Shown here in pieces: positions 3,075-59,889 of a stretch of 64,000 nt of DNA. Made by a program: the position numbers and the translations under genes. The stretch is taken from NCBI RefSeq assembly GCF_018613155.1, contig NZ_JAGGQU010000038.1, positions 1 to 64,000 of the forward strand. Reading direction: 5' to 3'. Within the stretch, counting starts at the first letter, position 1. Each line of letters starts with the position of its first letter. The stretch is from Bacillus sp. ISL-55 (GTDB taxonomy: Bacteria > Bacillota > Bacilli > Bacillales > Cytobacillaceae). A model generated the notes under the pieces. That model did no database searches and had not been told where the DNA came from. It saw only the letters and a program-made list of their open reading frames with translations.

Positions 3075-3393
3075 TCCGCTCACCTATTCTCAGTAATATA
3101 TTTTGATTATCCTATATTTAAATTAAGTAGGTATGTGAAGTTTTTAACACATTTAAGTATAGCACCCATAACGAGAAGGAAGATGCCTGTTTTTTTACTA
3201 AAATGTGAACGGGGAAATAAGTGAGAATTTTCAGGGCGGGAAATGTAATGGATTATTGCGGAATAGATTTCGATTTTTAAGTGGGGACGGGTGGAATTAA
3301 GGATATCGCCTTCGCTCATCGTATAAATATATTAATGAAATGTACCCTTATCGAAGACGGAAACCTCGCATAAGGGCACGTTTAACCCAAGAA
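3075..3393. other. intergenic region, no gene seen
   Basis: The gap between hemY and the ABC permease has only short frames without a ribosome binding site. Its one notable element is the solo hairpin repeat at 3338-3383. Confidence 0.6.
3338..3383. repeat. solo copy of the CCCTTAT/ATAAGGG hairpin repeat
   Basis: This 46-bp inverted repeat (left arm AAATGTACCCTTAT, right arm ATAAGGGCACGTTT) is one unit of the family that forms the seven-copy array at 23655-24019. The loop differs but the arms are nearly the same. Confidence 0.8.
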
Positions 3394-4191
3394 TCACATA
3401 TTCATATCTCTTTTACGATAAAAAACGTAGGTCACGATTGTCAGCCCGAACAGCAGCAGAGCTGACAGTGCCAGATAGAGGGGTTCGAACCCGCCTTCCT
3501 CCAAAACAAGCTTCGCATCATAATATTTAAATGGAGTCAGGAACTTCAATCCATCCAGCTTTTCATTCATATCAATTGCTATTGATAAAATGAAAAGGAT
3601 AAGCAAGGTGCCAGTTGCCAGCGATGTGGCTTTTTTGGCGTTTTTATAGATAGCAGCGATTGCGGTTCCGGTAACCAGGAAGATCAGCTGCAGAATAAAC
3701 ATTCCGGCCATCAGTAAGGAAATATCCCCGGTCACGCTCTCACCTTCCGCATAGTATTGGACCATTCCCACAGAGGTAGCGAAGGTCACAATATTGAAAA
3801 TCAGAATGTTGACCAAAGCGGCTATTAGTTTGGATGTGATCATTCTCGTTCTTGAAACTGGTTTGACAAGCAGGAACTCGACCGTCTTGTCACGCTCTTC
3901 CTTGGCAATGATGTTTGAGCCGAGCATCGCTGCGTGGATAGCTCCCATCACAGCCAGGTATAGGAATAAGACTCCAAAATAACCAATCGGTGTGGACAGA
4001 TCGAGTGAACCCGTTCCCATGATGGCCTGCAGCGATTTAGGCATATCGGCCATCAACGCATTCATCGATTGCCCCGTCACTTCCAGACTTGAGTACTTGC
4101 CCATGCCCGCGGCGACCATGAAGATGACACCGATACTCCAAATGATGAGCGACTTGCGATTTGCTTTCATTTCCCTTTTAAAAAGATTCAT
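3394..4191 (-). CDS. ABC-2 type transporter permease (second of two)
   Basis: This 265-residue integral membrane protein has about six hydrophobic segments, starting with one near residues 17-35. The cytoplasmic motif KEERDKTVEFLLVKPVSRTRM is typical of ABC-2 permeases of the multidrug or bacteriocin-export kind. It is a paralogue of the permease encoded just upstream, sharing the ordered motif (KTVEFLL.KPV.RT). Its start has GGGAGGAGGG eight bases upstream and lies 15 bp after the preceding stop. It ends the TetR-ATPase-permease-permease operon. The substrate is unknown. Confidence 0.85.
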   Translation of the reverse strand: MNLFKREMKANRKSLIIWSIGVIFMVAAGMGKYSSLEVTGQSMNALMADMPKSLQAIMGTGSLDLSTPIGYFGVLFLYLAVMGAIHAAMLGSNIIAKEERDKTVEFLLVKPVSRTRMITSKLIAALVNILIFNIVTFATSVGMVQYYAEGESVTGDISLLMAGMFILQLIFLVTGTAIAAIYKNAKKATSLATGTLLILFILSIAIDMNEKLDGLKFLTPFKYYDAKLVLEEGGFEPLYLALSALLLFGLTIVTYVFYRKRDMNM

Positions 4192-4206
4192 GACTTTCCC
4201 TCCTCC

Positions 4207-5004
4207 CTAAACGGAATGGACATCTTTTTTAGCATAAAAATAATAGCTGGCCGAGACCGCAGCGATGATAAAAATGACCCCCGCTATGATAAATGAAGTT
4301 TCATAGCTTGAGTTTTCTGTGATATAAGCAGAGTCGAAATAATTGAACGGCGTCAAATAACGTAAAGCTTCATCCTCTGTCGTCGAACTGATCATTCCGA
4401 GCATGAAAAATCCAAAAACAGTACCTAGTGAAACGGATATCACAGATTTTATTCTCGGGAAAATTACCGAAATGATAATTCCTAGTGCCATGAACATTAG
4501 CTGGATGAAAAACAGGGAAATAGCAATCAGGAACAAAGCTTGCTTGTTAAAATCGTCACCTTCTACAATAGACGCCATCACGAAAGTCGCTCCGATAAAA
4601 ACGATGTTGGTGATTACCAGCGAAACCAGCGCTGCCAACAGCTTGGAAGTGACTACCTGAGTCCTTGTCACTGGCTTGGTGAGCAGGAAGTCGGCTGTCT
4701 TTTCCCGTGTTTCCTTTGATAGGATCGAGGTTCCAAGTTTCATAGCCTGGATGGCGCCCGCTAGCTTCAGGTATAGGAATGCGTAAGAGAAAAAACCAAT
4801 CAATGTCGCGATGCTGTCCACTGACAATCCAATTGCTTTCCTTAATTCAACCGGGAATCCTTCAAGCAGCTTCTTAAACTCTTCTGCATCCTTTGAAAAG
4901 GAAGGAAACATTGATAAAAACAAGACAACCATCGCCACCAACGACAAGGTCCAAATAATAGTCGACTTTCGATATGCCTTCAGTTCATGAAGGAATATAT
5001 TCAT
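4207..5004 (-). CDS. ABC-2 type transporter permease (first of two)
   Basis: This 265-residue membrane protein resembles its downstream neighbour, with an N-terminal hydrophobic segment, the conserved cytoplasmic stretch KETREKTADFLLTKPVTRTQ and five further membrane segments. The two permeases presumably form a heterodimer driven by the ATPase encoded three bases upstream. The very tight spacing supports one mRNA. The role is export of an unidentified compound, inferred from the ABC-2 family and the linked TetR regulator. Confidence 0.85.
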   Translation of the reverse strand: MNIFLHELKAYRKSTIIWTLSLVAMVVLFLSMFPSFSKDAEEFKKLLEGFPVELRKAIGLSVDSIATLIGFFSYAFLYLKLAGAIQAMKLGTSILSKETREKTADFLLTKPVTRTQVVTSKLLAALVSLVITNIVFIGATFVMASIVEGDDFNKQALFLIAISLFFIQLMFMALGIIISVIFPRIKSVISVSLGTVFGFFMLGMISSTTEDEALRYLTPFNYFDSAYITENSSYETSFIIAGVIFIIAAVSASYYFYAKKDVHSV

Positions 5005-5007
5005 GTT

Positions 5008-5892
5008 CTATTCCTCCTTTTCATAGTAATGCATGAAGATCTCTTCCAAGTCAGGCTCCTCGACCCATAGGTTCGCAATCTCGATTTCAGCAATTTTCTT
5101 CATGATGGAATTGATGTTGCCTCTGAAAAGGAAGCTGACCAATTCACCGTCCTGCTCAAGCTGGTTCACACCGTCAATATTGAAAAGGGTTTTATCGATT
5201 ACGGAATTGGTTTCGATTTTGAATTTCTTGTAGGTGTTTTCTTTTAACGTGCTGATTTTCTCGACAGTGACAATCCGGCCATCCTTGATAATCGCAACCC
5301 TGTCGCACAGTCTCTGCACCTCGCTGAGAATATGAGAAGAAAAGAGAATCGTCGCGCCTTTCTTGTTTTCTTTTTCAAGAAGGTCAAAGAACTTCTGCTG
5401 CATGAGCGGATCCAGCCCGCTCGTCGGTTCATCAAGGATAATTAGCTTCGGTTCATGAAGCAGTCCCTGAACGATGCCAACCTTCTTTTTGTTACCAAGC
5501 GAAAGGTCATCGATTTTCTTCGTAAGGTCGAGCTCCATGATGTCAGCAAGCTCTTTAATCCGCTTTGTGCAGTCCTTTTTGTAAAAGCTTGCGGAATACT
5601 TGAGCAGATCCATAACCTTCATATTGTCATAGTAAAATACCTCAGATGGCAGGTACCCGATATCCTTTTTGATTTCCGGAGCAGCGGTGATGATATCTTT
5701 TCCAAATATCGTCGCGCTGCCGCTCGTTGGATAAATCAATGATAGTAACGTCCTGATCGTCGTTGATTTCCCTGCGCCATTCGGGCCAATGAACCCGAAA
5801 ATTTCTCCTTCCTTCACATTGAAACTAACATCCTCAATTCCCCTGGCCTTGCCGTACATTTTAGTCAGATTTTTAATCTCAATCACGTTCAT
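5008..5892 (-). CDS. ABC transporter ATP-binding protein
   Basis: This 294-residue nucleotide-binding subunit has Walker A GPNGAGKST at residues 36-44, the signature LSLGNKKK at about 130-137 and Walker B LIILDEP ending near 156, followed by the D-loop SGLDP. A C-terminal extension of about 75 residues (beta-rich, ending in EEIFMHYYEKEE) is typical of ABC-2 exporters such as the YhaQ/NatA types. The ATG follows GGGAGGG. It lies 50 bp after the TetR gene and three bases before the first permease, so it is in the same operon. Confidence 0.9.
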   Translation of the reverse strand: MNVIEIKNLTKMYGKARGIEDVSFNVKEGEIFGFIGPNGAGKSTTIRTLLSLIYPTSGSATIFGKDIITAAPEIKKDIGYLPSEVFYYDNMKVMDLLKYSASFYKKDCTKRIKELADIMELDLTKKIDDLSLGNKKKVGIVQGLLHEPKLIILDEPTSGLDPLMQQKFFDLLEKENKKGATILFSSHILSEVQRLCDRVAIIKDGRIVTVEKISTLKENTYKKFKIETNSVIDKTLFNIDGVNQLEQDGELVSFLFRGNINSIMKKIAEIEIANLWVEEPDLEEIFMHYYEKEE

Positions 5893-5942
5893 GCCAGACC
5901 CTCCCAGATTATAATTCTTTTTATCTTTTCATTCTCTTTTTC

Positions 5943-6572
5943 TTAGACATTCTTGTAAAAAGCCTTCTTCATCATCTCGATATACACTTCGACTTCTTTG
6001 AATGCTTCATCAAAGTCGTGATGTGCTTTGTTCAGCTTTTTGGCTTTTTCTAATTCCTGGTTGCTGAAGCCCTGGAGTGTCCACATTATGATGTTGATGG
6101 CTCGCTGGATGTCGACTCCAGCCCTGAACCTAGTGATGTCAATATTCTCGAATAGCCTGCTGTAACTTGCCTGGATCAGCTCTGTATTTGTGTTATTCAA
6201 TATTTCCTTTACTTCTTCCGCGGTTTCCATGGAGGCTGCCACCATGAAGTCGAATACTTCCGGATGCCTTGCCATCAGTTTGTTTTTCAGGATCATCAGC
6301 GTTTTCATCCGTTCGAAAATGTCGCGTTCGCTCAGGTCCAATTCATTAAAGAACTCTTCTACCATCACACCGGCAAAGTGGTTATAAAGGAACAGATAAA
6401 GTTCTTTCTTGTTATTAAAATAGTGGAATAGCAGTCCTTTTGAGATGCCTGCTGATTTGACGATTTCATTCGTGGATGCCTTTTCGTATCCTTTCAGGGC
6501 AAACTCCTTTAGAGCGGCGTTCAGGATTCGTTCTTGCTTTTCAGGATTCAAGCTTAAAAACTTTGAAGACAT
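5943..6572 (-). CDS. TetR-family transcriptional regulator
   Basis: This 209-residue repressor has an N-terminal TetR helix-turn-helix (about residues 10-55, with KGYEKASTNEIVKSAGISKGLLFHYFNNKKELY) and an alpha-helical ligand domain. AAGGAGG lies seven bases before its ATG. It is the first gene of the exporter operon. Two identical inverted repeats lie directly upstream, so it probably represses its own operon and is released by a compound the exporter removes. The inducer is unknown. Confidence 0.9.
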   Translation of the reverse strand: MSSKFLSLNPEKQERILNAALKEFALKGYEKASTNEIVKSAGISKGLLFHYFNNKKELYLFLYNHFAGVMVEEFFNELDLSERDIFERMKTLMILKNKLMARHPEVFDFMVAASMETAEEVKEILNNTNTELIQASYSRLFENIDITRFRAGVDIQRAINIIMWTLQGFSNQELEKAKKLNKAHHDFDEAFKEVEVYIEMMKKAFYKNV

Positions 6573-6593
6573 AACGCCCTCCTTAAATTATTA

Positions 6594-6610
6594 TTGACCA
6601 CATCGGTCAA
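6594..6610. promoter_or_regulatory. proximal TetR operator
   Basis: The 17-bp inverted repeat TTGACC-ACATC-GGTCAA lies 22 bp upstream of the TetR start codon. An identical copy lies 34 bp farther up. Confidence 0.75.
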
Positions 6611-6614
6611 TTAC

Positions 6615-12156: not shown

Positions 12157-12198
12157 TTCTTTATTACTGCTGGAAAAAATCGCGGATAATTTCCAATT

Positions 12199-12389
12199 CG
12201 CTATAAAAACGAAAAAATCGCTATAAAAAAATTTTTTTCGCTATAAAAATCAGAAAATCGCTATAAAAAATCTATTTTCGCTATAAAAATGAAAAAATCG
12301 CTATAAAAAATATGAAAGTCGCTATAAAAAATCTATTTTAACTATATAAATCAGAAAGCCGCTATATAAAATTAAAATTTCCGCTATAT
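12199..12389. repeat. short tandem array, 20-bp period (CGCTATAAAAA)
   Basis: CGCTATAAA recurs at 12199, 12219, 12239, 12259, 12279, 12299 and 12320, then in decayed form near 12340, 12360 and 12382. The spacing is a steady 20 bp at first, and the filler between copies is AT-rich and variable. It lies between the convergent CAP and subtilisin genes. Confidence 0.9.
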
Positions 12390-12460: not shown

Positions 12461-12534
12461 TTATTGGCGGTTTTCACAACTTTATTGGCGATTTTCACCT
12501 GCTTATTGGCGAAAATCAAATTATATTGGCGAAC
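12461..12534. repeat. short tandem array, 21-bp period (TTATTGGCG)
   Basis: TTATTGGCG or TATATTGGCG occurs at 12461, 12482, 12503 and about 12523. A related unit appears once more at about 59795, next to TATCGACCA units. Confidence 0.85.
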
Positions 12535-23654: not shown

Positions 23655-24019
23655 TAATGTACCCTTATGTAGGTGAAATACGATGCATAAGGGTCCATTT
23701 AACACTTGAAATGTACCCTTATGTAGATGAATTGTGGTGCATAAGGGTACATTTAGCCTTCAAATGTTCCCTTAGGTAGGTGAAATACGATGCATAAGGG
23801 TCCATTTAGCCTTCAAATGTTCCCTTAGGTAGATGAATTGCGGTGCATAAGGGTGCATTTAGCCTTTAAATGTGCCCTTATGTAGGTGAAATGCGATGTA
23901 TAAGGGTACATTTACCCTTTAAATGTTCCCTTATGTAGATGAAACGCGGTGCATAAGGGTGCATTTAGCCTTTAAATGTTCCCTTATGTAGGTGAAATGA
24001 GGTGTATAAGGCTGCATTT
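23655..24019. repeat. seven-copy hairpin array, 53-bp period
   Basis: Units start at 23655, 23709, 23762, 23815, 23868, 23921 and 23974. In the best unit the arms AAATGTACCCTTATG and CATAAGGGTACATTT are perfectly complementary over 15 bp around a 16-nt loop, with a seven-base linker between units. The loops alternate between GTAGGTGAAAT- and GTAGATGAA-type sequences. It fills the space between the convergent dacC and NERD genes; no other feature is visible to 24071. Confidence 0.95.
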
Positions 24020-24071
24020 AACCTTGAATGGCTTTTTGAATTTCCTCCAGAAGGATACCTTTTTCATATAC

Positions 24072-25010
24072 TTACTCTAATAGCAGATAACCCTCTTTAT
24101 TTTCTTTAATTGTATAGTGAGCACCACGGCCACAGCCGCTCAATGTAAAGTCATCTACAAGAATGTTCCTGATGGCTTTTTTCGTTTTGATTGATTTGCA
24201 CCAATCTTGAATCTTGCTGACTGTTAATTCTTCTTCCGGAAAAAGTAATTGAAGGTCTCTTACACTTCTCAATACTGCTTCATGAATATTTTCCCGCTTC
24301 CCGCAATTATTGCATATTAATGTTTTTCTCGTGACTATTGTATTCAATGTATGACAATGAGAACAAGCTATTCCCTTCTTCAATTTCTCGAAATTATATT
24401 CAGGGAGCCTCTTATACGGTGAATCGTGGGAATGCAAGGAAAGCAGCCTATCTGATAGATTTGTATGAGTATTTTTTATTGGGGTAATTTGTTTTTGCAG
24501 ATTATGAAGTAGTCTCGGAATATGGTTGGGAAAGATAATTGGTAAATTACGAGGAGCTTGATAGAGGTAAAAGTTCGGGTTCACGAAGACTAGAGTTGAT
24601 TCAATGTTAATATTGAATCCAAGTTCCCGTATCATCCTTCGCAGGAGAGACTCAGCTCTTTCCATTTGTATTAGAGGATTCTTGATTTCTGTTCCATTGC
24701 TGGTGTACCACCTGTCACCTTCCATATAATAATCGCCTTCGAAATACTTTACTTCAAACAAGTGGATGATCTTGGAGATGAATAGGGAATCGATTTGAAA
24801 TTTGGTATTACCATGTTCAAGGAGCAGGTCATTCATTACCAAGAAGCCTTTTTCAATCTCCTCCATCCTGCGATCAAAAATCACTTCTCCTTCATAACCT
24901 TTTTCCAGGTAGAGATAGTTACTGTATTCTTTCGGAGACAAGTTCATTCGGGCATTCAGTATCCTCAGAATCTGCAGTTCAAGGGATTCAACACGTGATT
25001 TAACTATCAA
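24072..25010 (-). CDS. NERD-domain protein with C-terminal zinc ribbon
   Basis: This 312-residue protein belongs to the nuclease-related NERD group, related to restriction-like folds. The likely catalytic pattern is Glu41 (GYEGE), Asp74 (FQIDSL) and Glu86-x-Lys88 (FEVKYF). A zinc ribbon with cysteines at about 216, 219, 233 and 236 follows. The start is taken as TTG because GGAGG lies seven bases before it and the resulting MIVKSR N-terminus looks like other family members; the ATG frame begins inside the ribosome binding site. No partner genes are adjacent. Nuclease activity is a family inference. Confidence 0.78.
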   Translation of the reverse strand: MIVKSRVESLELQILRILNARMNLSPKEYSNYLYLEKGYEGEVIFDRRMEEIEKGFLVMNDLLLEHGNTKFQIDSLFISKIIHLFEVKYFEGDYYMEGDRWYTSNGTEIKNPLIQMERAESLLRRMIRELGFNINIESTLVFVNPNFYLYQAPRNLPIIFPNHIPRLLHNLQKQITPIKNTHTNLSDRLLSLHSHDSPYKRLPEYNFEKLKKGIACSHCHTLNTIVTRKTLICNNCGKRENIHEAVLRSVRDLQLLFPEEELTVSKIQDWCKSIKTKKAIRNILVDDFTLSGCGRGAHYTIKENKEGYLLLE

Positions 25011-25130
25011 AAAACATTCCTCCATTCGCTATGTATTGCAATTAAATAGTATGTTTTATTTGAATATTTAACAAGTTTTTTTTACTTTGAGTGTCATGCA
25101 AAAAGTTTCCGCATAACCAATTGAGAAAAA

Positions 25131-26126: not shown

Positions 26127-26219
26127 TATCGACCACATTTTGCAATATATCAGCGAATTTTTATTTTATCGACCAAATTCAAAATATATCGACCACTTCC
26201 CCCTATATATTGACCACTC
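26127..26219. repeat. short tandem array, 20-bp period (TATCGACCA)
   Basis: TATCGACCA-type units occur at 26127, about 26147 (decayed), 26167, 26187 and 26207 with a steady 20-bp step. It lies between the divergent LysM and catalase genes. The same unit is found at 59815-59890. Confidence 0.85.
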
Positions 26220-26268
26220 CACATAATCCATATCAAAATGAGAGCCTTACGTTAGATTTATTACTTAA

Positions 26269-26318: not shown

Positions 26319-26357
26319 TTGACTATAAACCAAATTCACTATAAAGGCGGGATTATG

Positions 26358-27818
26358 ATGAGCAATAATCAAAATAAACTTCTTACTACAAGCTGGGGTG
26401 CTCCGGTTGGGGACAACCAGAACTCGATGACTGCAGGACAAAGAGGTCCTACTCTACTGCAAGACGTACACTTGATGGAAAAATTGGCGCACTTTAATCG
26501 TGAGCGTGTGCCTGAGCGTGTTGTGCACGCAAAAGGTGCAGGAGCACATGGCTATTTTGAAGTTACTAATGATGTAACAAAATATACGAAGGCAGCATTC
26601 CTTTCAGAGGTTGGCAAAAAGACACCACTTTTCGTCCGTTTTTCAACGGTTGCTGGTGAACTTGGATCAGCAGACACTGTCCGGGACCCGCGCGGTTTCG
26701 CGGTGAAGTTTTATACAGAGGAAGGAAACTATGATATCGTCGGGAACAATACTCCGGTATTTTTCATCCGTGACGCGATCAAGTTCCCTGATTTTATCCA
26801 TACACAAAAGAGAAACCCACAAACACACTTGAAGGATCCAAATGCAGTTTGGGATTTCTGGTCACTTTCACCTGAGGCATTGCACCAGGTAACCATCCTG
26901 ATGTCCGATCGCGGCATCCCGGCTACCCTACGCCATATGCACGGTTTCGGCAGCCATACGTTCAAGTGGACAAATGCCGAGGGCGATGGCGTCTGGATCA
27001 AGTATCACTTCAAGACAGAACAAGGCGTGAAAAATCTTACAGCAGATGTAGCCGCTAAAATTGCAGGCGAAAATCCTGACTATCATACAGAAGATTTGTT
27101 CAATGCGATTGAAGCTGGGGACTTCCCTGCATGGAAGCTATATGTGCAGATCATGCCACTTGAGGATGCGAACACCTATCGTTTCGATCCATTCGATGTC
27201 ACAAAGGTATGGTCACAGAAGGATTATCCATTGATTGAAGTCGGCCGCATGGTATTGAATCGTAACCCAGAAAATTATTTCGCGGAAGTTGAGCAGGCTA
27301 CATTCTCTCCTGGAAACCTTGTTCCTGGTGTCGATGTTTCTCCTGATAAAATGCTACAAGGCCGATTGTTCGCATATGCTGATGCGCACCGTTACCGTGT
27401 TGGCGCAAACCATAATCACCTGCCGATCAACAGGGCAAAATCAAAAGTGAACTCCTACCAGCGCGACGGCCAGATGCGTTTTGATGGCAATGGCGGCAAA
27501 TCAGTAAACTACGAGCCTAATAGTTTCGGAGGACCAACTGAAGTGAATGAGCACAAGCAAGCAGCCTTCCCTGTCAGCGGGGTAGCTGAAAACGTGGGCT
27601 ACGATCACCACGACCATTATACACAAGCCGGTGACCTGTACCGCCTGATGGGCGAAGAAGAACGCGAACGCCTTGTCGCTAATATTGTCGCTGCAATGAA
27701 GCCAGTTCAGCGAGACGATATCAAACTCCGCCAGATCGGCCACTTCTACAAAGCAGATCCAGAATACGGAACACGCATTGCTCAAGGATTGGGCCTGCAG
27801 GTGCCACAGGAAGTTTAA
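26358..27818 (+). CDS. katA: vegetative-type haem catalase
   Basis: This 486-residue clade-3 small-subunit catalase breaks down hydrogen peroxide. The distal His57 lies in [12 protein letters not shown], the Asn region in [15 protein letters not shown], and the proximal haem-ligand tyrosine in [13 protein letters not shown]. Of two adjacent ATG codons (26355, 26358) I choose the second, with AAGGCGG seven bases upstream. A PerR-like box and promoter precede it. It begins a run of redox-stress genes (azoR, catE-like, dps). Confidence 0.96.
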
Positions 27819-27856: not shown

Positions 27857-27906
27857 TATTTTATATAGTAACAAGCTGATAGGCTTAGAGGGATTTTTTG
27901 GATTAG

Positions 27907-28229
27907 TGTCCATTAGAAATGCTCTATCGGACAAACTCATGGCGATCTCTTCAAAATGTGTCCGTTAGACAGGCTCTATCGGACAAACTCATGGCACCCC
28001 CCTCAAAATGTGTCCGTTAGACGGGCTCTATCGGACAAACTCATGGCGATCTCCTCAAAATGTGTCCGTTAGACAGGCTCTATCGACACAGTCACGACAA
28101 TCTCCTGAAAAAGTGTCCGTTAGACGGGCTCTATCGGACAAACCCATGGCAATCTCCTCAAAATGTGTCCGTTAAAAGACTTTCTCTCGGACAAACCCGG
28201 TTCGACATTTCAAATAAGTGGCCGTTAGA
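27907..28229. repeat. hairpin array, 52-bp period (TGTCCGTTAGA/TCTATCGGACA)
   Basis: Units begin at 27907, 27959, 28011, 28063, 28114, 28166 and a decayed one at 28219. Each holds an inverted repeat: arms TGTCCGTTAGA and TCTATCGGACA pair at ten of eleven positions around a five-base loop. A linker containing CTCATGGCGATCTCCTCAAAA is also repeated. It lies between the convergent katA and azoR genes. Confidence 0.95.
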
Positions 28230-35267: not shown

Positions 35268-36965
35268 TTAGTAAGTTCTTTGCTCCCAGCCTTCTCCTGA
35301 AAACTCAGGCTCAACCTTTTTACCATCAGAAGTTACTAGACTAATATTGTCCACATACCAGCCGCGGCCATTTGTATAACTGTCTGTTTGGTAGCGGAAA
35401 CGGATGTGCTTAGTCCCTGCTGGAATTTCAACTTGCTCTGAATTCCAATCTATACTGCTTCCTGTAAAAATAGCTGCTTGCTGCCAGCTTTCACCGTCTT
35501 CTGAGATCTCCAGATAACCATAATCTGCATCATTTTCAATCCGATGCCAGGTGTCGAATGATAGTTTAGCAGACTTTTCAAGTTTTACCTCTGCTGTCAT
35601 CGTGCGTTGGAGTTTGTCTCCATATCCTGAAAACCACGCAGACCCATCCGGAATGTTAACCGGGATTGAATCGGCAACCTGTCTTGCCAGCTGTCTCCGT
35701 GCGACATTCGTGGAAACCGTGCTGCGGCTTGGATGGACTCTGTTGGTGAGCAGGATAGCAATTGTGCCATTATTCCTGTTCACGACGATTGAAGTTCCGG
35801 TATAACCTGTATGGCCAAGTGAAGTACCTTCTGATAAGGCATCCATGAACCAGCCCTGAGCTAGCTCCCAGCCTAATCCATGGTCATCACCAGGGAACTC
35901 TGGGATTTGGTTTTCAACAATCATTTCTACGGTTTCTGGCTTTAAAATGACTTCGCTTCCATAACGGCCGTCATTCAAATACATATGGGCAAGCTTTGCC
36001 AGATCCTCCGCTGTCGAGAACACTCCTGCATGCCCGGCAACACCATCCAGTGACCAGGCGTTTTCGTCATGAACTTCACCCCAGACCATTCCGCGATGAA
36101 GCGCTGGCTGGTATTCTGTGGCGGCGATCCGCTTTTTCAGTGAAGCCGGCGGATTGTACATCGTATCAGCCATTCCCAGCGGCTCTGTTATATTCTCTTT
36201 GACAAACTCATCCTGGCGCTGGCCAGAGAGCCTTTCGATCAACAAACCGAGTGTGATCATGTTGAGGTCGCTGTATGTATAAGTACTGCCCGGCTCATTA
36301 TTTAGCGGATGCTCTAACACAAAATTCATTCTGTCCTCTCGGCTGCTTCCTTTTGTATAAAGAGGCACCCATGCAGTGAAACCAGATGTGTGGGTAAGGA
36401 GCTGCCTGATGGTGACGTCTTCTTTTCCATTGGCGGCGAACTCAGGAATATGCTTAGAAACTTTATCATCGAGTTCAAATCTGCCCTGGTCATATAAAAT
36501 CATCGCCGCAGTGGTCGTAAAAATTTTACTGATAGAAGCAAGATCAAAGATTGTATCCTCCTCCATCTTGATTGGTTCACTAGATTCAGTGAACTGGTCA
36601 TCTTCATATCTGTAGGCAAAACCATAGGCTTCCTGCTTCACGATATGGCCGCGGCGGGCGACGAATGCGACAGCCCCTGGCATCACGCCGTCAGCAATCA
36701 TTTTTTCCATATGCCCGTCGATCTCGTCAAGCGGCTGCTGTACCATCCCCGCTCCCCGAACCGACCCTCTATGGAGCACTGGCGATAAAGGGCCTGGCTT
36801 GTCCCATGAAAAGACAGGATGGACTTCCTTGAAGCCACCTTTGCCCTCCCGCTGTTCAATTGAAACCCCTGGTGCCTGATTGCCTTCCGCAAATGATACC
36901 GGAATCATCACTCCTGTACCGAGAACTGCTGCCGTTAAGGCAATTGATAGTCGTTTGTTCTTCAT
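35268..36965 (-). CDS. amiE: exported N-acetylmuramyl-L-alanine amidase of the beta-lactamase fold (AmiE-like)
   Basis: This 565-residue protein has a signal peptide (to about residue 26) and a serine beta-lactamase-like domain with Ser144-Ile-Ser-Lys147 (DLASISKIF), Tyr231 (TYSDLN) and a GHTG box. A C-terminal beta-rich domain (about 430-565) looks carbohydrate-binding. In B. subtilis the homologue removes the peptide from MurNAc ahead of NagZ and NamZ. Other beta-lactamase-fold hydrolases look alike, so the name rests mainly on operon order. AAAAGGAGG precedes the ATG. Confidence 0.85.
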   Translation of the reverse strand: MKNKRLSIALTAAVLGTGVMIPVSFAEGNQAPGVSIEQREGKGGFKEVHPVFSWDKPGPLSPVLHRGSVRGAGMVQQPLDEIDGHMEKMIADGVMPGAVAFVARRGHIVKQEAYGFAYRYEDDQFTESSEPIKMEEDTIFDLASISKIFTTTAAMILYDQGRFELDDKVSKHIPEFAANGKEDVTIRQLLTHTSGFTAWVPLYTKGSSREDRMNFVLEHPLNNEPGSTYTYSDLNMITLGLLIERLSGQRQDEFVKENITEPLGMADTMYNPPASLKKRIAATEYQPALHRGMVWGEVHDENAWSLDGVAGHAGVFSTAEDLAKLAHMYLNDGRYGSEVILKPETVEMIVENQIPEFPGDDHGLGWELAQGWFMDALSEGTSLGHTGYTGTSIVVNRNNGTIAILLTNRVHPSRSTVSTNVARRQLARQVADSIPVNIPDGSAWFSGYGDKLQRTMTAEVKLEKSAKLSFDTWHRIENDADYGYLEISEDGESWQQAAIFTGSSIDWNSEQVEIPAGTKHIRFRYQTDSYTNGRGWYVDNISLVTSDGKKVEPEFSGEGWEQRTY

Positions 36966-37699: not shown

Positions 37700-38365
37700 G
37701 CGTCACAGTAAAACCATTTTCTTGACAGCTTTGCCCCTTAATCTTGAAACCTGTCACAATAAACCCGGTTTCTTGACAGCTTTGGGCCTTAACCCCTGAA
37801 ACCTGTCATAATAATCCCGGTTTCTTGACAGCTTTGGGCCCTAACCCCTGAAACCTGTCATAATAATCGCATTTTCTTGACAGCTTTGAGCCTTAACCCC
37901 TGAAACCTGTCACAATAACCGCGTTTTCTTGACAGCTTTGGGCCTTAACCTCCGAAACCTGTCACAATAAACCCGGTTTCTTGACAGCTTTAAGCCTAAA
38001 ACCATGAAACCTGTCACAATAAACCCGGTTTCTTGACAGCTTTAAGCCTAAAACCATGAAACCTGTCACAATAAACCCGGTTTCTTGACAGCTTTGAGCC
38101 TAAAACCATGAAACCTGTCATAATAAACCCGGTTTCTTGACAGCTTTCGGCCTAAAACCATGAAACCTGTCACAATAAACCCGGTTTCTTGACAGCTTTG
38201 AGCCTAAAACCATGAAACCTGTCATAATAAACCCGGTTTCTTGACAGCTTTGGGCCTAAAACCATGAAACCTGTCACAATAAACCCGTTTTCTTGACAGC
38301 TTTGCGCCTTAACCACTGAAACCTGTCATAATAATTTGCGTTTTCTTGACAGCTTTGTTCACTAC
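37700..38365. repeat. thirteen-copy tandem array, 52-bp period (CTGTCA/TGACAG)
   Basis: The TTGACAGC motif recurs at 37722, 37773, 37825, 37877, 37929, 37981, 38033, 38085, 38137, 38189, 38241, 38293 and 38346. Each unit reads roughly GAAACCTGTCA, CAATAAACCC, GGTTTCTTGACAG, CTTTGAGCCTAAAACCAT. CTGTCA pairs with TGACAG and GAAACC pairs with GGTTTC, the two pairings being interleaved. Units in the middle are nearly identical, and the flanks have drifted. No other feature is visible in 37592-38539. Confidence 0.97.
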
Positions 38366-47145: not shown

Positions 47146-47180
47146 CGCAATCCCCTCTATTTCTCCTTCTGTATGTGCTA

Positions 47181-47277
47181 ATGTGACGATAATTCCTGCT
47201 GCTCCTTCTTTATCCGCACATTAGAGCCATTTATGTGACGATAATTCCTGCTGCCTCTTCTTTATCCGCACATTTCA
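47181..47277. repeat. two-copy hairpin repeat, 52-bp period (TGTGACGATAA/TTATCCGCACA)
   Basis: Two units start at 47181 and 47233. Each has arms ATGTGACGATAA and TTATCCGCACAT with two mismatches and a loop of about 17 nt rich in CTGCTG. They lie between the response regulator promoter region and the persulfide dioxygenase gene end. The remainder of 47146-47484 shows nothing else. Confidence 0.85.
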
Positions 47278-47452
47278 GCCGTCAACCTGTTATCTGTTAT
47301 ATTCTAAATTATAGCGGAATTGAGCTGGAATCAACTTTTTTAATAATTTTTACAGATTATTTAATCATTTGGTCATAGTTTGTTCATGTTTTAAGAGTGA
47401 TGTGTGTTTGCTAATTTATAGATAGTTATTCCTTTTAATCATAAAAAGAAAA

Positions 47453-50984: not shown

Positions 50985-51008
50985 AGAGCCCGGCATATGC
51001 CTGGCTCT
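50985..51008 (+). terminator. terminator of DoxX paralogue 2
   Basis: AGAGCC/GGCTCT with inner pairs CGGCATATGCCTG is followed by seven T. Confidence 0.8.
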
Positions 51009-51013
51009 TTTTT

Positions 51014-51286
51014 GTTATCGGCTTTTCTGATTTTTAAATGGTTTCATTTTTTGTTATGAGCTTTTCTGATTTTTAATCGGTTTCATTTTTCGTTATCAGC
51101 TTTTCTGATTTTTAGTCGGTTTCATTTTTCGTTATCAGCTTTTCTGATTTTTAGTCGGTTTCATTTTTTGTTATCAGATCTTCTAACGTTTTGATTGGCT
51201 CTTTTTTCGTTATCGGCTCTTTCTGGCATTTTAACTGGCTCTTTTTAGTTATCAGCTCTGCCTGGTGATTTGATTGCTCTTGCCAG
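51014..51286. repeat. seven-copy tandem array, 39-bp period (GTTATCAGCTTTTCTGAT)
   Basis: GTTATC or GTTATG occurs at 51014, 51053, 51092, 51131, 51170, 51209 and 51248, exactly 39 bp apart each time. ATCAG-CTTTT-CTGAT makes a small hairpin in the middle units, followed by TTTTTAGTCGGTTTCATTTT. The last units have drifted. It separates DoxX paralogues 2 and 3. The stretch 51287-51450 shows nothing else. Confidence 0.95.
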
Positions 51287-52936: not shown

Positions 52937-52938
52937 GG

Positions 52939-55056: not shown

Positions 55057-55159
55057 ATATCTCCCTCTGTTACTGTTAGATTGATTCCAAATGGCATTCC
55101 ATTACCTTTGAAAGCCCCGCAGTGTCTTTTCAAGTGCTCGTCCCGCCTGAAGAGAATTA

Positions 55160-55459
55160 TTCTATGTGACCTTTTTTGGCTTGGTGGCCTCTTTTGGGCT
55201 TATAGGTTAATTCTATAGGACCTTTTTTGGCTCGGTTGCCTCTTTTGGGCTTATAGAATTTTTCTATAGGACCCTTTCTGGCTCGGCGGCCTCTTTTGGG
55301 CTTATAGATTTATTCTATAGGACCTTTTCTGGCTCGGCGGCCTCTTTTGGGCTTATAGGTTAATTCTATAGGACCTTTTTTGGCTCGGTTGCCTCTTTTG
55401 GGCTTATAGAAATTTGCTATAGGACCTTTTTTAGCTTGGTGGTCTTTTTTGGGCTTATA
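55160..55459. repeat. six-copy hairpin array, 51-bp period (CTATAGGACC/GGGCTTATAG)
   Basis: TTCTATAGGACC-type starts lie at 55160, 55211, 55262, 55313, 55364 and about 55415. Each unit pairs CTATAGGACC imperfectly with GGGCTTATAG across a segment containing TTTTGGCTCGG and GCCTCTTTT. It lies between the DUF445 gene start and the metQ end. The remaining bases to 55579 show nothing else. Confidence 0.93.
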
Positions 55460-55579
55460 GTTGTTACCTTTCCGCCTGGTTCGTGCAGATTCAACAATAA
55501 AAGAACAAAAGAGCCTTCCTAAAAGAGTCTCTTCAATATTTTAACCAATTTATAGGGGAGAAAGCTATAAAAAAGGAAA

Positions 55580-56452: not shown

Positions 56453-56473
56453 TTTAAAAGAACCCCCTATTAT

Positions 56474-57142
56474 TTATCTTTTGTCTACTACTCTTGCAAT
56501 CCTGTCTCCGCCAAACTGGATCAGCTGGACGAGACAGATCAGGATAATGACTGTCGTAATCATGATTGTATTGTCGTATCTGTAATAGCCGAAGCGGATT
56601 GCCAGGTCGCCAACTCCCCCTCCGCCGACAATGCCGGCCATTGCCGAATAGGCAACAAGGCTGATGATGGTGATGGTCACACCCTGGACGATGCCCGGCT
56701 TTGCCTCGGGAATCAAAACGTCTTTAATGATCATCCATGGCGTCGCACCAGTTGCAACGGCAGCTTCGATGACACCCTTATCAATTTCCCGGAAGCTTTG
56801 CTCTACGATTCTAGCGAAAAACGGAATCGCCGCGACAGATAGAGAAACAGATGCGGCTGTCGGCCCGATCGTTGTTCCTGCAATTAGATTCGCCAGTGGC
56901 AGAAGGGCGATCAATAAGATGATAAATGGAACCGAGCGAATCAAGTTGACGATGAAGCCGGCAATATTTTTAAAAGTTTGATTTTCAAGAAAAAGTCCCT
57001 TATCGGTGACAAAAAGCAGGACCCCTGTAGGCAATCCTACGATAATGGCAACAAAGATGGAGATGCCGACCATATAGATTGTTTCAAAGAATGCTTTGTT
57101 CAATTCCGGCAGCAATGAAATCAGGTTATCAAGCAGCATCAT
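56474..57142 (-). CDS. metI: methionine ABC transporter permease
   Basis: This 222-residue, five-helix permease has the inner-membrane EAA-like coupling motif (EAAVATGATPWMIIKDVLIPEA). GGAGGTG six bases upstream chooses the second of three start-like codons. It overlaps metN by 14 bp, so translation is coupled. Confidence 0.94.
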   Translation of the reverse strand: MMLLDNLISLLPELNKAFFETIYMVGISIFVAIIVGLPTGVLLFVTDKGLFLENQTFKNIAGFIVNLIRSVPFIILLIALLPLANLIAGTTIGPTAASVSLSVAAIPFFARIVEQSFREIDKGVIEAAVATGATPWMIIKDVLIPEAKPGIVQGVTITIISLVAYSAMAGIVGGGGVGDLAIRFGYYRYDNTIMITTVIILICLVQLIQFGGDRIARVVDKR

Positions 57143-58142
57143 CAATCACCTCCAGGTTTTTCGTCCTTGCCGCAATGTAGGCTATCGCCCGATCAATCTC
57201 CACCTGTTCTCCCGTGACCTCCATAATGAAAATCCCCAGTGGAATATCCTGAATATATTCAATCTTCCCATGCAGAATATTGCCGCGGACCTTAAAGGTT
57301 TGAAATACATCAGATATGACTCCCTGCTCGGCAATCTCACCCTGAAAATAGATCTTGATCAGCTTTCCTTGACGCTCCTCAAGCAATCTCTCCGGCAGTT
57401 CGAATTGAAGGATTGAGTTGACGAAATCCTTTGTGAGATGTTGTTTCGGATTCGCGAAGACTTCGTATACATTCCCTTCTTCAATGATTTTTCCATCCTG
57501 CATAACCGCCATCCTGTCGCAAATCGTCTTGACGACTTCCATCTCGTGGGTGATAAGGACAATGGTGATGCCCAATTCACTATTAATCTTTTTAAGTAAA
57601 GATAGAATCGATTTCGTCGTGCTCGGATCCAGAGCAGAAGTAGCTTCATCACACAAAAGCACTGATGGATTATTCGCGAGTGCCCTGGCGATGCCGACAC
57701 GCTGTTTCTGTCCGCCCGACAATTGTGCCGGATAGACATCTTTTTTATCTGAAAGACCGACCATATCGAGAAGTTCCGTAACTCTAGCACTGATTTCCGC
57801 TTTTGGAAGGCCAGCACCTTTCAACGCAAAGGCAATGTTTTCACTCACCGTCTTTGCGCTGACAAGATGGAAATGCTGAAAAATCATCCCGATTTTCAGG
57901 CGCGCTTTCCTCAGTTCAGTCTTGCTCAAAGAAGTGAGCTCTACACCGTCAATATGTATCTCTCCTGATGTCGGCTTTTCAAGGAGGTTCAAGCAACGGA
58001 TCAAAGAACTTTTCCCGGCACCGCTGTAGCCGACAATTCCGTATATCTCTCCCTTTTCTACTTTTAATGAAACATGGTCAACACCAGTAACTGACCCCTT
58101 TTTCGTTTCGTATATCTTGACCAGGTCTTTCACTTCAATCAT
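57129..58142 (-). CDS. metN: methionine ABC transporter ATPase
   Basis: This 337-residue ATPase has Walker A GYSGAGKSS, signature LSGGQKQRV, Walker B LLCDEATSALDP and a C-terminal NIL regulatory domain (about residues 255-335) that senses methionine. GGGGGTG precedes the chosen ATG, three codons inside the longer frame. It is the first gene after the SAM riboswitch. Confidence 0.95.
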   Translation of the reverse strand: MIEVKDLVKIYETKKGSVTGVDHVSLKVEKGEIYGIVGYSGAGKSSLIRCLNLLEKPTSGEIHIDGVELTSLSKTELRKARLKIGMIFQHFHLVSAKTVSENIAFALKGAGLPKAEISARVTELLDMVGLSDKKDVYPAQLSGGQKQRVGIARALANNPSVLLCDEATSALDPSTTKSILSLLKKINSELGITIVLITHEMEVVKTICDRMAVMQDGKIIEEGNVYEVFANPKQHLTKDFVNSILQFELPERLLEERQGKLIKIYFQGEIAEQGVISDVFQTFKVRGNILHGKIEYIQDIPLGIFIMEVTGEQVEIDRAIAYIAARTKNLEVIDDAA

Positions 58143-58173
58143 TCTTCGCACCCCCGTTTTTTAAAAATAAAAA

Positions 58174-58200
58174 AGCCTCTTTCATTCATAGAAAGAGGCA
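58174..58200 (-). terminator. SAM riboswitch terminator
   Basis: GCCTCTTTC/GAAAGAGGC is followed by TTTTTTATTTTT on the minus strand, between aptamer and metN. Confidence 0.9.
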
Positions 58201-58218
58201 TCGTAAACATCTATACGA

Positions 58219-58320
58219 CTTATCTTTCAGAATGAAATCATTCTGTAGGAAGTGGCACCTTTCCCAAAAAGGAGGTTGCCGGACGTCATTGGGCCTAATC
58301 CCTCAGTCTCTCTTGATAAG
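58219..58320 (-). promoter_or_regulatory. SAM-I (S-box) riboswitch
   Basis: Minus-strand sequence begins CTTATCAAGAGAGACTGAGG, continues through GGCCC.ATGA, CCGGCAACC and GGTGCCA, and ends AAAGATAAG, pairing with the start. This is the full S-box pattern. With SAM bound the terminator should form and shut off methionine uptake. Confidence 0.96.
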
Positions 58321-58350
58321 TTTCTTATTAAATTAATTTCGATAATTGAA

Positions 58351-58379
58351 ATATTAAGACTATCTGATTTATTTGTCAA
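58351..58379 (-). promoter_or_regulatory. metNIQ promoter
   Basis: On the minus strand a consensus TTGACA (58379-58374) and TAATAT (58356-58351) are separated by 17 bp, ahead of the SAM riboswitch. Confidence 0.75.
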
Positions 58380-58500
58380 TAAAGTTTTTTCGGAGATTCT
58401 AAAGTGATACCGCTTACACGATTGAGGGAGTAAGGAAATATTTTTTTAAAAAAAATCCCCAAGCTCAATTGATTTTTTTCAAAAAAAAAAAAGAAAAAAC

Positions 58501-58524
58501 CCTTGTTTACGATAAAACAAGGGC
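58501..58524 (-). terminator. chromate transporter terminator
   Basis: CCCTTGTTT and its complement form a stem overlapping the gene end, followed by a long T-rich run on the minus strand. Confidence 0.8.
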
Positions 58525-59037
58525 ACCGTAAACAAGGGAACCTGCGATGACATAGGCAGGGTGAACTTTTAATTTTTCCATCAGGATGAAGCTGATTCCG
58601 CCTATCAGAATCGTCTGCATCAGGCCGACTCCCTCATAGGAAGAGAAAAAGAAATCATAGGTCATGACTCCTAAAAGGACGGCAATGACAGGGCGGACGA
58701 CGATTGTCAGCCTTTTGACACGCGGGGAATCTTTGAATTTCATCAACAGTCCAAGCAAGCTGATCATTAGGATTAAGGATGGTGCCACCGTGGCAAATAC
58801 CCCAACGATCGCACCGAGAATACCGCCTTCTGCATATCCAATATAGCCTGCCATCTTGGTGGCAATCGGCCCCGGCAATGCGTTGCCCATCGCCAGCACT
58901 TCACTGAATTCATTGACTGTCATCCATTCATAACGGTCAACAACTTCATTTTCGATTAACGGAATGGAGGCAGGTCCACCGCCATATCCTAAAATTCCCG
59001 GAATGAAAAAGGCCAAAAATATATGGAAATAAATCAT
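58507..59037 (-). CDS. chromate-transporter-family protein, second half
   Basis: This 176-residue membrane protein is a single CHR domain with the signature FFIPGILGYGGGPASIPLIE and NALPGPIATKMAGYIGY. Short CHR proteins work as pairs; this one overlaps its partner by four bases (ATGA-type coupling). Family members export chromate, but sulfate-like anions or other roles are possible. Confidence 0.88.
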   Translation of the reverse strand: MIYFHIFLAFFIPGILGYGGGPASIPLIENEVVDRYEWMTVNEFSEVLAMGNALPGPIATKMAGYIGYAEGGILGAIVGVFATVAPSLILMISLLGLLMKFKDSPRVKRLTIVVRPVIAVLLGVMTYDFFFSSYEGVGLMQTILIGGISFILMEKLKVHPAYVIAGSLVYGALVLS

Positions 59038-59609
59038 TGCTGCTCCCCTCCTCTTTGTTTATTTTCAGCAGGAGCAGGGTCTTTTTTCAGCAAGGCACCC
59101 AGCAGCAATACAAAAATTAAAATAGCGGGATGCAGATTCAAGAATTGAAGAAGTACCAGGCTGCCGATAAGCGCTACAGCTGTCCAGGCCCATCCAAGCT
59201 TTGACTTGCCTGACTTCTTGATGAAATCCCAGGTCAGGACAGCGAGCATGACTGCAACAACTGGAACAACAGCCTCAGCCATTCCGTTCACCCATGGCTC
59301 ATCTTTATATGAGTTCAGCCCGGTCAGCAGCAGGATCATCAGGATGATCGCCGGAATCATCGTTGCTGCGAGGGCATTGAACATACCCAGGTATCCGCCT
59401 ACACGATAGCCAATGTATCCAGCCATTTTTGTGGCAATAGGTCCTGGCAGCGCATTTCCCAAAGCAAGGACATCCCCGAACTCATCAGAATCCATCCATT
59501 TATATTTTTCTACCACTTCCTTATGTACAAGCGGAATCGAAGACGGGCCTCCCCCATAGCCAAGGATTCCGACGCGAAAAAACGCTAAGAATAAATCTCT
59601 TTGTTTCAA
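59034..59609 (-). CDS. chromate-transporter-family protein, first half
   Basis: This 191-residue paralogue of the following gene carries FFRVGILGYGGGPSSIPLVHKEVVE and the same NALPGPIATKMAGYIGY motif, with five or six membrane segments and a charged tail (KKDPAPAENKQRGGEQQ). The pair corresponds to a split long-chain ChrA, as in B. subtilis YwrA/YwrB. Confidence 0.88.
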   Translation of the reverse strand: MKQRDLFLAFFRVGILGYGGGPSSIPLVHKEVVEKYKWMDSDEFGDVLALGNALPGPIATKMAGYIGYRVGGYLGMFNALAATMIPAIILMILLLTGLNSYKDEPWVNGMAEAVVPVVAVMLAVLTWDFIKKSGKSKLGWAWTAVALIGSLVLLQFLNLHPAILIFVLLLGALLKKDPAPAENKQRGGEQQ

Positions 59610-59794
59610 TACTTCACCTTCTCTTCTGTTATTAGTGCCTAAAGCAGTCTCTTTCTATGAATCTTATTGCTTTTATTTTATTATAGACTCATATATTCGA
59701 TACTGCATGTCAAATACAAGTTAATTTACCGTCGGGGGGCTTATTTTTGTAATTTTAATCTTGTAAATGGTTCATGTTCACCTGGCGATACACT

Positions 59795-59889
59795 TTATTG
59801 GCGAATTTTTAATTTTATCGACCACTTTTTGAATTATTTCGACCACAATCACAATTATTTCGACCACTTTTTCAATTATTTCGACCACA
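59795..59889. repeat. short tandem array, 21-bp period (TTATTGGCG then TCGACCAC)
   Basis: One TTATTGGCG unit at 59795 is followed by TATCGACCAC near 59816 and TTTCGACCAC near 59837, 59858 and 59879, stepping 21 bp. It mixes the families found at 12461 and 26127. It lies in the gap between the chromate pair and the chemoreceptor gene; nothing else was seen in 59610-59990. Confidence 0.85.

What the first reader, a model, noticed from the sequence alone, without database searches (positions are those of the whole stretch)
3338..59889. Many gene borders carry tandem repeats or hairpins with different sequences but a shared design
Arrays or hairpin clusters lie at about 3.3, 12.2, 12.5, 15.1, 23.7, 26.1, 27.9, 37.7, 47.2, 51.0, 55.2 and 59.8 kb. 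Periods fall into 51-53 bp (five loci), 39 bp (one) and 20-21 bp (four). Consensus sequences mostly differ between loci, yet long-period units usually hold an inverted repeat. All sit at transcription-unit borders, in convergent, divergent or same-direction gaps, and none inside an operon. The 52 and 21 bp steps are close to whole helical turns, so motifs would lie on one DNA face (inference). I know of no described system of this kind.
Basis: partly seen in the sequence, partly recalled or inferred. Interest (0 to 1): 0.78.

Follow-up and report, generated by a model that had tools for sequence, protein, structure and literature searches.

The report
NERD nuclease genes and matching satellites
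The repeat arrays between genes in this bacterium belong to a published but unexplained class, and several families turn out to sit beside a gene for a matching putative DNA-cutting protein, which gives these puzzling repeats a testable partner.

Summary
The arrays are real: 51-53 bp tandem arrays at 23.7, 27.9, 37.7 and 55.2 kb, 20-21 bp arrays at 12.2, 12.5 and 59.8 kb, one 39-bp array at 51.0 kb, and relic units elsewhere. The organism is a Mesobacillus. Constant-length, variable-sequence 52 and 20-21 nt satellites were already described in Bacillus (PMC8161180), function unknown, so 'no described system' is wrong. New here: the arrays pair with NERD-domain proteins (putative nuclease, zinc ribbon, probable winged helix). 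In Mesobacillus, 52 of 57 'type A' NERD genes have a 51-53 bp array starting within 150 bp of the stop codon, against 23 of 476 ordinary genes; in other genera 22 of 25. Of 54 'type B' genes, 50 have 20-21 bp repeats upstream, against 9 of 472 genes. Other NERD types have neither. NERD clades carry their own arm motifs, with two mixed clades. One family occurs in strength only in genomes holding its gene (intact or broken); a second shows two exceptions. Arm mismatches show no RNA-strand bias. I infer that each NERD protein binds its arrays, and that cutting and repair amplifies and spreads them, like RAYTs with REPs but with an unrelated enzyme. The pairing is well supported; binding and cleavage are inferred.

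The parts
24072..25025 (-). Type A NERD gene (317 aa): putative nuclease domain, four-cysteine zinc ribbon, C-terminal winged-helix-like part; partner of family F3
   Evidence: Pfam PF08378 E 1.1e-15; 52 of 57 Mesobacillus type A genes have a 51-53 bp array within 150 bp of the stop; NERD and Cys residues invariant in an alignment of 26
23656..24025 (.). F3 array, 53 bp x 7.0, arms CCCTTAT-18-ATAAGGG, 47 bp past the NERD stop codon
3338..3383 (.). Solitary F3 unit (relic); G005 has 3.8 units at the same place
12197..12372 (.). 20-bp array, motif TTCGCTATAAA, as upstream of the B1b form of a type B NERD in other genomes; preceded by a CTGGAAA..TTTCCA hairpin like that before the gene-side arrays (by eye)
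12461..12533 (.). 21-bp array, motif TTATTGGCGA (reverse complement of TCGCCAATAA), as upstream of this genome's B1a NERD (G000:C16:62740); TRF ends it at 12512, the rest by eye
26128..26220 (.). Degenerate 20-21 bp units (ends by eye), motif TATCGACCAC, close to that upstream of this genome's B2 NERD (G000:C14:44306)
27905..28174 (.). F1 array, 52 bp x 5.2, palindrome TGTCCGTTAGA-n5-TCTATCGGACA; NERD beside an F1 array at G000:C11:279206
37702..38357 (.). F2 array, 52 bp x 12.6, arms TTGACAGCTTT / AACCTGTCA; NERD beside an F2 array at G000:C48:37531
47172..47290 (.). Two degraded units (ends by eye) in a gap where G015 and G016 carry F4 arrays and G011 and G014 carry F3 arrays
51001..51257 (.). 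39-bp array x 6.6 just after a terminator-like hairpin; no NERD partner assigned
55153..55460 (.). F5 array, 51 bp x 5.9, arms CTATAGGACC / GGGCTTATAG; F5 arrays sit beside NERDs of the F5/F7 clade in other genomes
59806..59903 (.). 21-bp array, motif ATTTCGACCAC (reverse complement GTGGTCGAAAT), B2 type

Best explanation
The arrays are the DNA half of two-part systems whose protein half is a NERD-domain protein. SHOWN: type A NERD genes carry 51-53 bp arrays, most with palindromic arms, directly after their stop codon; most type B NERD genes carry 20-21 bp direct-repeat arrays ending about 65-150 bp before their start codon in Mesobacillus; NERD clades have their own motifs, with two mixed clades; arrays with the same motif are scattered through the same genome between genes. 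INFERRED (about 0.8): each protein binds its motif through the C-terminal zinc ribbon and winged helix, and the constant period (about 5 or 2 helical turns) reflects the spacing of bound protein. INFERRED (about 0.45): the NERD part cuts or nicks at the arrays, and repair within a tandem array expands, shrinks and homogenises it and now and then copies it into another gap, where it survives because gene borders tolerate it. Gene and repeats thus resemble a RAYT transposase and its REPs, using a different enzyme.
For: Adjacency: 52 of 57 type A genes against 23 of 476 genes of the own-genome sample, Fisher p about 7e-48; 22 of 25 type A genes of other genera. Type B: chains of at least 3 motif copies at 20-21 bp spacing in 34 of 34 distinct upstream regions, at least 4 in 28 of 34 (one search counted 41 with 7 duplicates), and in 16 of 20 further loci, against 9 (3 or more) and 4 (4 or more) of 472 genes. 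Control: 30 of 30 loci of other NERD genes lack a 52-bp array at the 3' end and a 21-bp array at the 5' end; 7 of 7 more show no array. Specificity: arrays beside orthologous NERDs share 7-mers (mean 0.171, 89 pairs), those of paralogs in one genome hardly (0.018, 89 pairs), 0 of 2000 permutations. Co-occurrence: F3 units 27-182 in 15 genomes with the gene (one truncated, one with an early stop), 0-10 in 6 without. Rigid geometry: 49 of the 50 forward F3 sites listed, of 88, have a gap of exactly 18 although 4-34 was allowed; reversed control 0. F3 spacer identity 0.81 within and 0.41 between arrays. NERD residues conserved in 26 type A and 15 type B proteins. DNA rather than RNA: arm mismatches G-T 83, A-C 99.
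Against: No binding, cleavage or mobility was measured. F4: 2 of 6 genomes without the gene still hold 42 and 49 units. B1: motif counts follow the gene's form only loosely, and G010 (66% complete, no type B hit) holds 25 units of one motif. Within two NERD clades the adjacent array changes type (F5 or F7; F1 or F6), so adjacency is not strictly one to one. 4 of 20 type B loci have no upstream array; three of these have a 21-bp array past the 3' end. Some gene-side arrays have only weak arms (for example L100, L164, L090, L165). The structure model was too poor to confirm the winged helix (pLDDT 38). Orthologous sites are not independent, and no statistic is corrected for phylogeny.
Confidence: 0.62

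Rival explanations
1. Structural platform: NERD proteins polymerise on the arrays and shape the nucleoid or insulate neighbouring transcription units; the nuclease motif serves binding only, and arrays persist because they are useful. This is the nucleoid idea of Subirana and Messeguer with NERD as the missing protein.
For: Constant periods near whole helical turns, rigid arm spacing, location between genes with convergent gaps enriched, two window gaps in which arrays lie between facing terminator-like sites (12.2-12.5 and 27.9 kb).
Against: NERD genes are broken or lost in at least five cases while arrays of the family remain in the genome (stop codons in L083 and L183, truncated L095 and L179; F4 gene replaced in G000); array positions turn over between species; nuclease-type residues are conserved, which a pure binder would not need.
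Confidence: 0.25
2. The arrays act as RNA: transcribed hairpins work as terminators, sRNAs or sponges, as proposed in PMC8161180 and PMC8625621.
For: Published RNA-seq reads match such satellites in B. coagulans (PMC8625621, parts 1 and 2 of 3 read); many units contain palindromes.
Against: No excess of G-T over A-C arm mismatches in the sense of the upstream NERD gene (83 against 99; 17 against 16 arrays with 12 ties); arrays in two window gaps lie between facing terminator-like sites; a fixed 18-bp gap is not needed for an RNA hairpin.
Confidence: 0.06
3. Passive satellites: the arrays come from replication slippage with a length preference, and NERD genes merely lie in tolerant gaps.
For: Copy number varies freely between relatives; satellites can arise by slippage (general knowledge).
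Against: Adjacency 52 of 57 against 23 of 476 genes, clade-linked motifs, absence beside other NERD types, and F3 gene-array co-occurrence.
Confidence: 0.04
4. Operators only: the gene-side arrays are ordinary autoregulatory sites of NERD proteins that act as transcription regulators, and the dispersed arrays are their regulon.
For: Type B arrays end about 65-150 bp before the start codon in Mesobacillus; winged-helix-like C-terminus (by eye).
Against: Type A arrays lie after the stop codon; 11 of 34 sampled arrays lie in convergent gaps and only 4 in divergent gaps.
Confidence: 0.1

Closest known systems
52-nt and 20-21-nt constant-length satellites of Bacillus (Subirana and Messeguer, PMC8161180; their J Bacteriol 2020 paper is not held)
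   Same: Same periods, non-coding, many families per genome with shared short signals, same genus group (B. selenatarsenatis, B. subterraneus). Their B. coagulans consensus TGTCCTTCAT..GATGAAaGACA and B. weihaiensis signal TCGCGG resemble arrays found here beside NERD genes.
   Different: The parts I read name no protein partner and say there is no evidence for a Cas-like protein; they give no gene-side location, arm-spacing rule or gene-array co-occurrence.
REP/REPIN elements with RAYT transposases (PMC3116915, abstract and outline seen)
   Same: A chromosomal nuclease gene near its own palindromic repeats, with related repeats dispersed in extragenic space and several parallel families.
   Different: NERD is a PD-(D/E)XK-like domain (recalled), not a Y1 transposase; units form tandem arrays of fixed 52 or 21 bp period with array-private spacers instead of REP doublets.
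CRISPR arrays
   Same: Palindromic repeat and spacer layout at first sight.
   Different: The spacer is nearly the same within an array and the adjacent gene is NERD, not cas.
Iterons beside replication initiator genes (recalled, no call)
   Same: Type B: direct repeats of 20-21 bp next to the gene of a probable winged-helix protein.
   Different: Dispersed through the chromosome; the protein carries a nuclease-related domain; the type A query has no match on held plasmids or phages, the type B query two weak plasmid matches.
NERD-domain proteins (Grynberg and Godzik 2004, recalled; SmdA, PMC9040797, passages seen)
   Same: Same domain family.
   Different: SmdA is a membrane protein; those passages state that the function of NERD in bacteria had to the authors' knowledge never been studied before.

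Membership tests
Bacillus 52/20-21-nt satellites | Tandem repeats of 51-53 or 20-21 nt | tested here: met
   34 of 40 arrays of a 464 kb sample
Bacillus 52/20-21-nt satellites | Non-coding location | tested here: met
   27 of 34 outside any called gene without masking, the other 7 under short low-scoring frames
Bacillus 52/20-21-nt satellites | Constant length with several unrelated sequences in one genome, short shared signals and their reverse complement | tested here: met
   families
RAYT/REPIN | Repeats lie beside a matching nuclease gene and are dispersed extragenically | tested here: met
   that the protein is a nuclease is inferred
RAYT/REPIN | Adjacent gene encodes a Y1/HUH transposase | tested here: not met
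   Pfam finds NERD in the window protein and in all 15 type B proteins scanned; presence of RAYT genes elsewhere in the genome was not tested
RAYT/REPIN | GTAG or CGTC tag at the palindrome | tested here: not met
   array consensus sequences show no common tag (by eye)
CRISPR | Different spacers between identical repeats | tested here: not met
   F3 spacers 0.81 identical within arrays
CRISPR | cas genes nearby | tested here: inconclusive
   the gene beside the array is NERD; PADLOC gives only weak partial hits for five NERD proteins; other neighbours were not scanned for cas
PD-(D/E)XK nuclease | Catalytic residues present | tested here: met
   G-E, Q-x-D, x-x-K and Q invariant in both alignments; that these are the catalytic residues is recalled
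PD-(D/E)XK nuclease | Cleaves DNA at the array | not testable with these tools
   needs a biochemical assay
Mobile repeat | New copies appear in trans when the gene is present | tested here: inconclusive
   co-occurrence and family switching at one site fit, but no movement was observed

The most novel reading that the evidence does not exclude
Many Bacillales chromosomes carry several, in Mesobacillus up to about a dozen, parallel nuclease-satellite systems: each NERD protein (nuclease domain, zinc ribbon, winged helix) recognises its own motif and drives amplification, homogenisation and spread of its tandem arrays, with the protein's geometry fixing the period at 52 bp (type A, palindromic) or 20-21 bp (type B, direct). 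This would explain the constant-length bacterial satellites and give NERD proteins a first DNA target.
Probability: 0.45. Interest if true: 0.9.

Novelty: new variant of a known kind. Interest (0 to 1): 0.8.

Why it matters
The 52 and 20-21 nt satellites have been catalogued in Bacillus without a known function or partner protein, and I found no report of a DNA target for the NERD domain. Joining the two makes both questions testable with one protein and one oligonucleotide. If the proteins do amplify their arrays, this is a new kind of intragenomic repeat driver, with distinct sequence specificities spread over many paralogs in one genome. It may also explain why many NERD genes sit at contig ends in draft genomes.

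Tried and rejected
RNA reading: the test for G-T over A-C bias in arm mismatches was negative. B1 test (motif TCGCCAATA against TCGCTATA in genomes with the B1a or B1b form): share of the first motif 0.56-1.00 in 12 B1a genomes and 0.18-0.92 in 7 B1b genomes, overlapping; the second pattern demanded TT before the motif and so undercounts some genomes; inconclusive. F4 co-occurrence has two exceptions, G000 and G019. Sample of 40 kb from each of 10 genomes with and 10 without a type A match: 5 (in 4 genomes) against 0 arrays of the 52-bp class, in the right direction but small (one of the five is a 54-bp, 2-copy array). Viral contigs gave no relatives by the patterns used; plasmids gave no type A hit and two weak type B hits; phages gave no type A hit (type B not tried). 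PDB sequences gave nothing usable. The structure model of the window protein was too poor for a fold search, so none was run. RAYT genes (PF01797) were planned as a check and not searched. The 39-bp array at 51.0 kb and the 15.1 kb inverted repeats were not explained. The J Bacteriol 2020 paper is not held. Literature searches for a NERD-repeat link: (all five terms) found no paper, the 20 of 1,713 papers listed held no 'NERD domain', and one search shows NERD only as a putative CRISPR auxiliary gene in a figure legend; the other papers listed were not opened, save passages of PMC9040797.

Full report
What is there. Reading the other places shows a solitary unit at 3.3 kb of the same family as 23.7 kb, two degraded units at 47.2 kb, degenerate 20-21 bp units at 26.1 kb and unassigned inverted repeats at 15.1 kb. 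The catalase at 26319-27818 is 93-95% identical to those of Mesobacillus subterraneus and Bacillus sp. ISL-41, and the held genome is 4.52 Mb in 69 contigs. In a 464 kb sample of this genome, one Markov resampling gave no array at the threshold where the real sequence gave 36. A looser run held 40 arrays, 34 of them of the 51-53 or 20-21 bp classes. That run masked arrays before gene calling; unmasked, 27 of the 34 lie outside any called gene and 7 under short, low-scoring frames.

What was known. Subirana and Messeguer (PMC8161180; text parts 1-4 of 5 and the tables read) describe 781 arrays of 20-21 nt and 1886 of 51-53 nt in 176 Bacillus genomes: constant length, variable sequence, species-specific short signals often present with their reverse. 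Their table lists B. selenatarsenatis, now in Mesobacillus by the taxonomy I recall, with 30 and 49 arrays of the two classes. They propose nucleoid proteins or small RNAs and say there is no evidence for a Cas-like protein.

Anatomy. One family (F3) shows the build best. The arms CCCTTAT and ATAAGGG recur in many arrays of this genome: 88 exact hits of CCCTTAT-N(4-34)-ATAAGGG, none in the reversed control, and 49 of the 50 forward sites listed have a gap of exactly 18. The 18-bp spacer is alike within an array (0.81, 60 pairs) and not between arrays (0.41 on the better strand, 193 pairs), from 23 units at 6 places. Other families have their own arms: F1 CGGACA/TGTCCG, F2 TTGACAGCTTT/AACCTGTCA, F4 GGGCACCAAT/TTGGTGACC, F5 CTATAAGCCC/GGTCC-TATAG and others; some gene-side arrays have only weak arms. 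Families switch at one site: the gap at window 47172-47445 is degraded here, F4 in G015 and G016, F3 in G011 and G014, with no array found in G005.

The partner. The window's F3 array ends 47 bp from the 3' end of a NERD-domain gene. A search of the 21 held Mesobacillus genomes found 4-12 related genes in 20 of them. I looked at 70 loci: the 30 that came, and 40 that cover the NERD genes listed there for the own genome and five complete genomes, plus two of G020, chosen without regard to arrays. L154 gave no hit and was dropped; L101 duplicates L150. Of 57 type A genes (36-100% identical to the window protein), 52 have an array of period 49-54 or 102-106 starting within 150 bp of the stop codon. 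The other five: L152, L105 and L179 have such repeats by eye but fail the automatic rule; L088 has 94 bp left on its contig; L095 is a truncated gene without an array. In the own-genome sample 23 of 476 genes pass a like rule. A second group, type B (22-26% identical), has arrays of 20-21 bp or multiples ending 65-108 bp upstream of the start codon in 11 of 11. With the 30 loci these make 41 upstream regions, of which 7 are duplicates. A chain score gives at least 3 motif copies in 34 of 34 distinct regions and at least 4 in 28, against 9 and 4 of 472 ordinary genes. Of 20 more type B loci, 16 score at least 4; L352, L359, L362 and L366 do not, and the last three of these have a 21-bp array past the 3' end.

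Controls and generality. The 30 best Pfam NERD hits in 120 genomes of the order are mostly shorter NERD proteins of a third type: none has a 52-bp array at its 3' end or a 21-bp array at its 5' end (two have a 21-bp array roughly 270-310 bp downstream). Of 20 further loci from other genera, 3 of 4 type A have the 3' array and the fourth a 5' one; 7 of 9 type B have a 5' array of 21 bp or a multiple (72-217 bp upstream), one a 40-bp array at the 3' end and one none; 7 of 7 of the third type have none. A profile search found type A genes in 81 of 199 Bacillales genomes; of the 25 best loci outside Mesobacillus, 22 have a 51-52 bp array starting within 150 bp downstream (misses L286, L289 with 138 bp of contig left, and L299 with a 5' array only; three of the 25 repeat genes). 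Their consensus sequences mostly differ from the window's, while several share TGTCCTTCAT/ATGAAGGACA arms, as in the published B. coagulans consensus. Samples of 40 kb from 10 genomes with and 10 without a type A match gave 5 against 0 arrays.

Specificity. In a tree of 55 type A and 2 type B proteins, clades match arm motifs, with two mixed clades (F5/F7 and F1/F6). Arrays beside orthologs in different genomes share 0.171 of their 7-mers, beside paralogs of one genome 0.018; none of 2000 within-genome label shuffles reached the difference (38 loci of seven genomes). Co-occurrence: F3 units number 112, 65, 168, 112, 182, 170, 27, 100, 89, 166, 99, 98, 80, 131 in 14 genomes with a near full-length F3 gene match (in G015 the gene has a stop at codon 53) and 75 in G017 with a truncated one, against 1, 10, 1, 0, 0 and 1 in the six without (the last is G010, 66% complete). 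In G003, which lacks the gene, the 10 units lie at 7 places, mostly single. F4 is less clean: 17-77 in 15 genomes with the gene, but 42 and 49 in G000 and G019 without it, and 3, 2, 0 and 0 in the other four. In G000 the F4 array and gene that lie between spoIIP-like and lepA-like genes (named by eye) in G016 and G011 are replaced by an F3 array of 10.9 units, so that loss looks real. B1 gave no clean result; G012, with no B1 gene, has none of either motif, while G010, with no type B hit and 66% complete, has 25 units of one.

Own-genome assignment. F3: the window gene. F1: G000:C11:279206. F2: G000:C48:37531. B1 (12.5 kb): G000:C16:62740. B2 (26.1 and 59.8 kb): G000:C14:44306, whose upstream GTGGTCGAATTA repeats resemble them. 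F5 belongs to a clade whose own-genome member carries F7. The 12.2 kb array matches the B1b form found in other genomes and by eye shares its flanking hairpin. The 39-bp array has no partner.

How it may work. The proteins carry a NERD domain with invariant G-E, Q-x-D, K and Q positions, four invariant cysteines and a variable C-terminus that looks by eye like a winged helix; Pfam sees only NERD and weak zinc ribbons in type B, and a single-sequence model was too poor to use. Arm mismatches show no G-T excess in 45 gene-side arrays, and in two window gaps the arrays lie between facing terminator-like sites, so I favour a DNA target. The homogeneity of arrays, turnover between species, loss of genes with lingering arrays, and absence of the type A query from held plasmids and phages fit a vertically inherited nuclease that amplifies its own binding arrays, as suggested for RAYTs and REPINs (PMC3116915, abstract). 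Binding is likely; cutting and spreading are a proposal.

Novelty. The satellites are known. Their pairing with NERD proteins was not found in the held library, which lacks most subscription papers. PMC9040797 (passages) says the function of NERD in bacteria had not been studied before. The statistics ignore shared ancestry; the adjacency result is strong enough that I think it little affected, the co-occurrence results could be.

Noticed in passing
G000:C35 (L277:2633-3275) against G016:C30 (L270:4914-6386): The F4 array plus F4 NERD gene between spoIIP-like and lepA-like genes is replaced in this genome by an F3 array of 10.9 units, with flanks 93-95% identical.
   Followed up: yes
window 51001-51257: A 39-bp array begins in the tail of a terminator-like hairpin (units resemble its CTGGCTCTTTTTT end) and has no NERD partner found.
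   Followed up: partly
L160, L168, L187, 3' side: Some B1 type B NERD genes also have a 33-34 bp array (motif near CATGCCAAA) 46-57 bp after the stop, a third period.
   Followed up: no
window 12170-12205; upstream of B1 NERD genes in L240-L258: A hairpin CTGGAAAAAA..TTTCCAGTTCGC stands before the upstream array in B1 loci and a version of it stands before the dispersed array in the window, as if hairpin and array travelled together.
   Followed up: partly
G000:C41, G001:C215, G008:C46, C65 and C80, G014:C19 and C22, G015:C38, G018:C24, G013:C31, G017:C91: These NERD genes lie within a few hundred bases of a contig end in draft genomes, as expected if the adjoining array broke the assembly.
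   Followed up: partly
L083, L183, L179, L095: NERD genes broken by an early stop or truncation, while arrays of the family remain in those genomes.
   Followed up: partly
The NERD part matches weakly the corresponding part of defence kinases (BREX PglW, MAD6).
   Followed up: no
window 35268-36965: A beta-lactamase-family protein with an immune-inhibitor-A-like MAM domain at its C-terminus.
   Followed up: no
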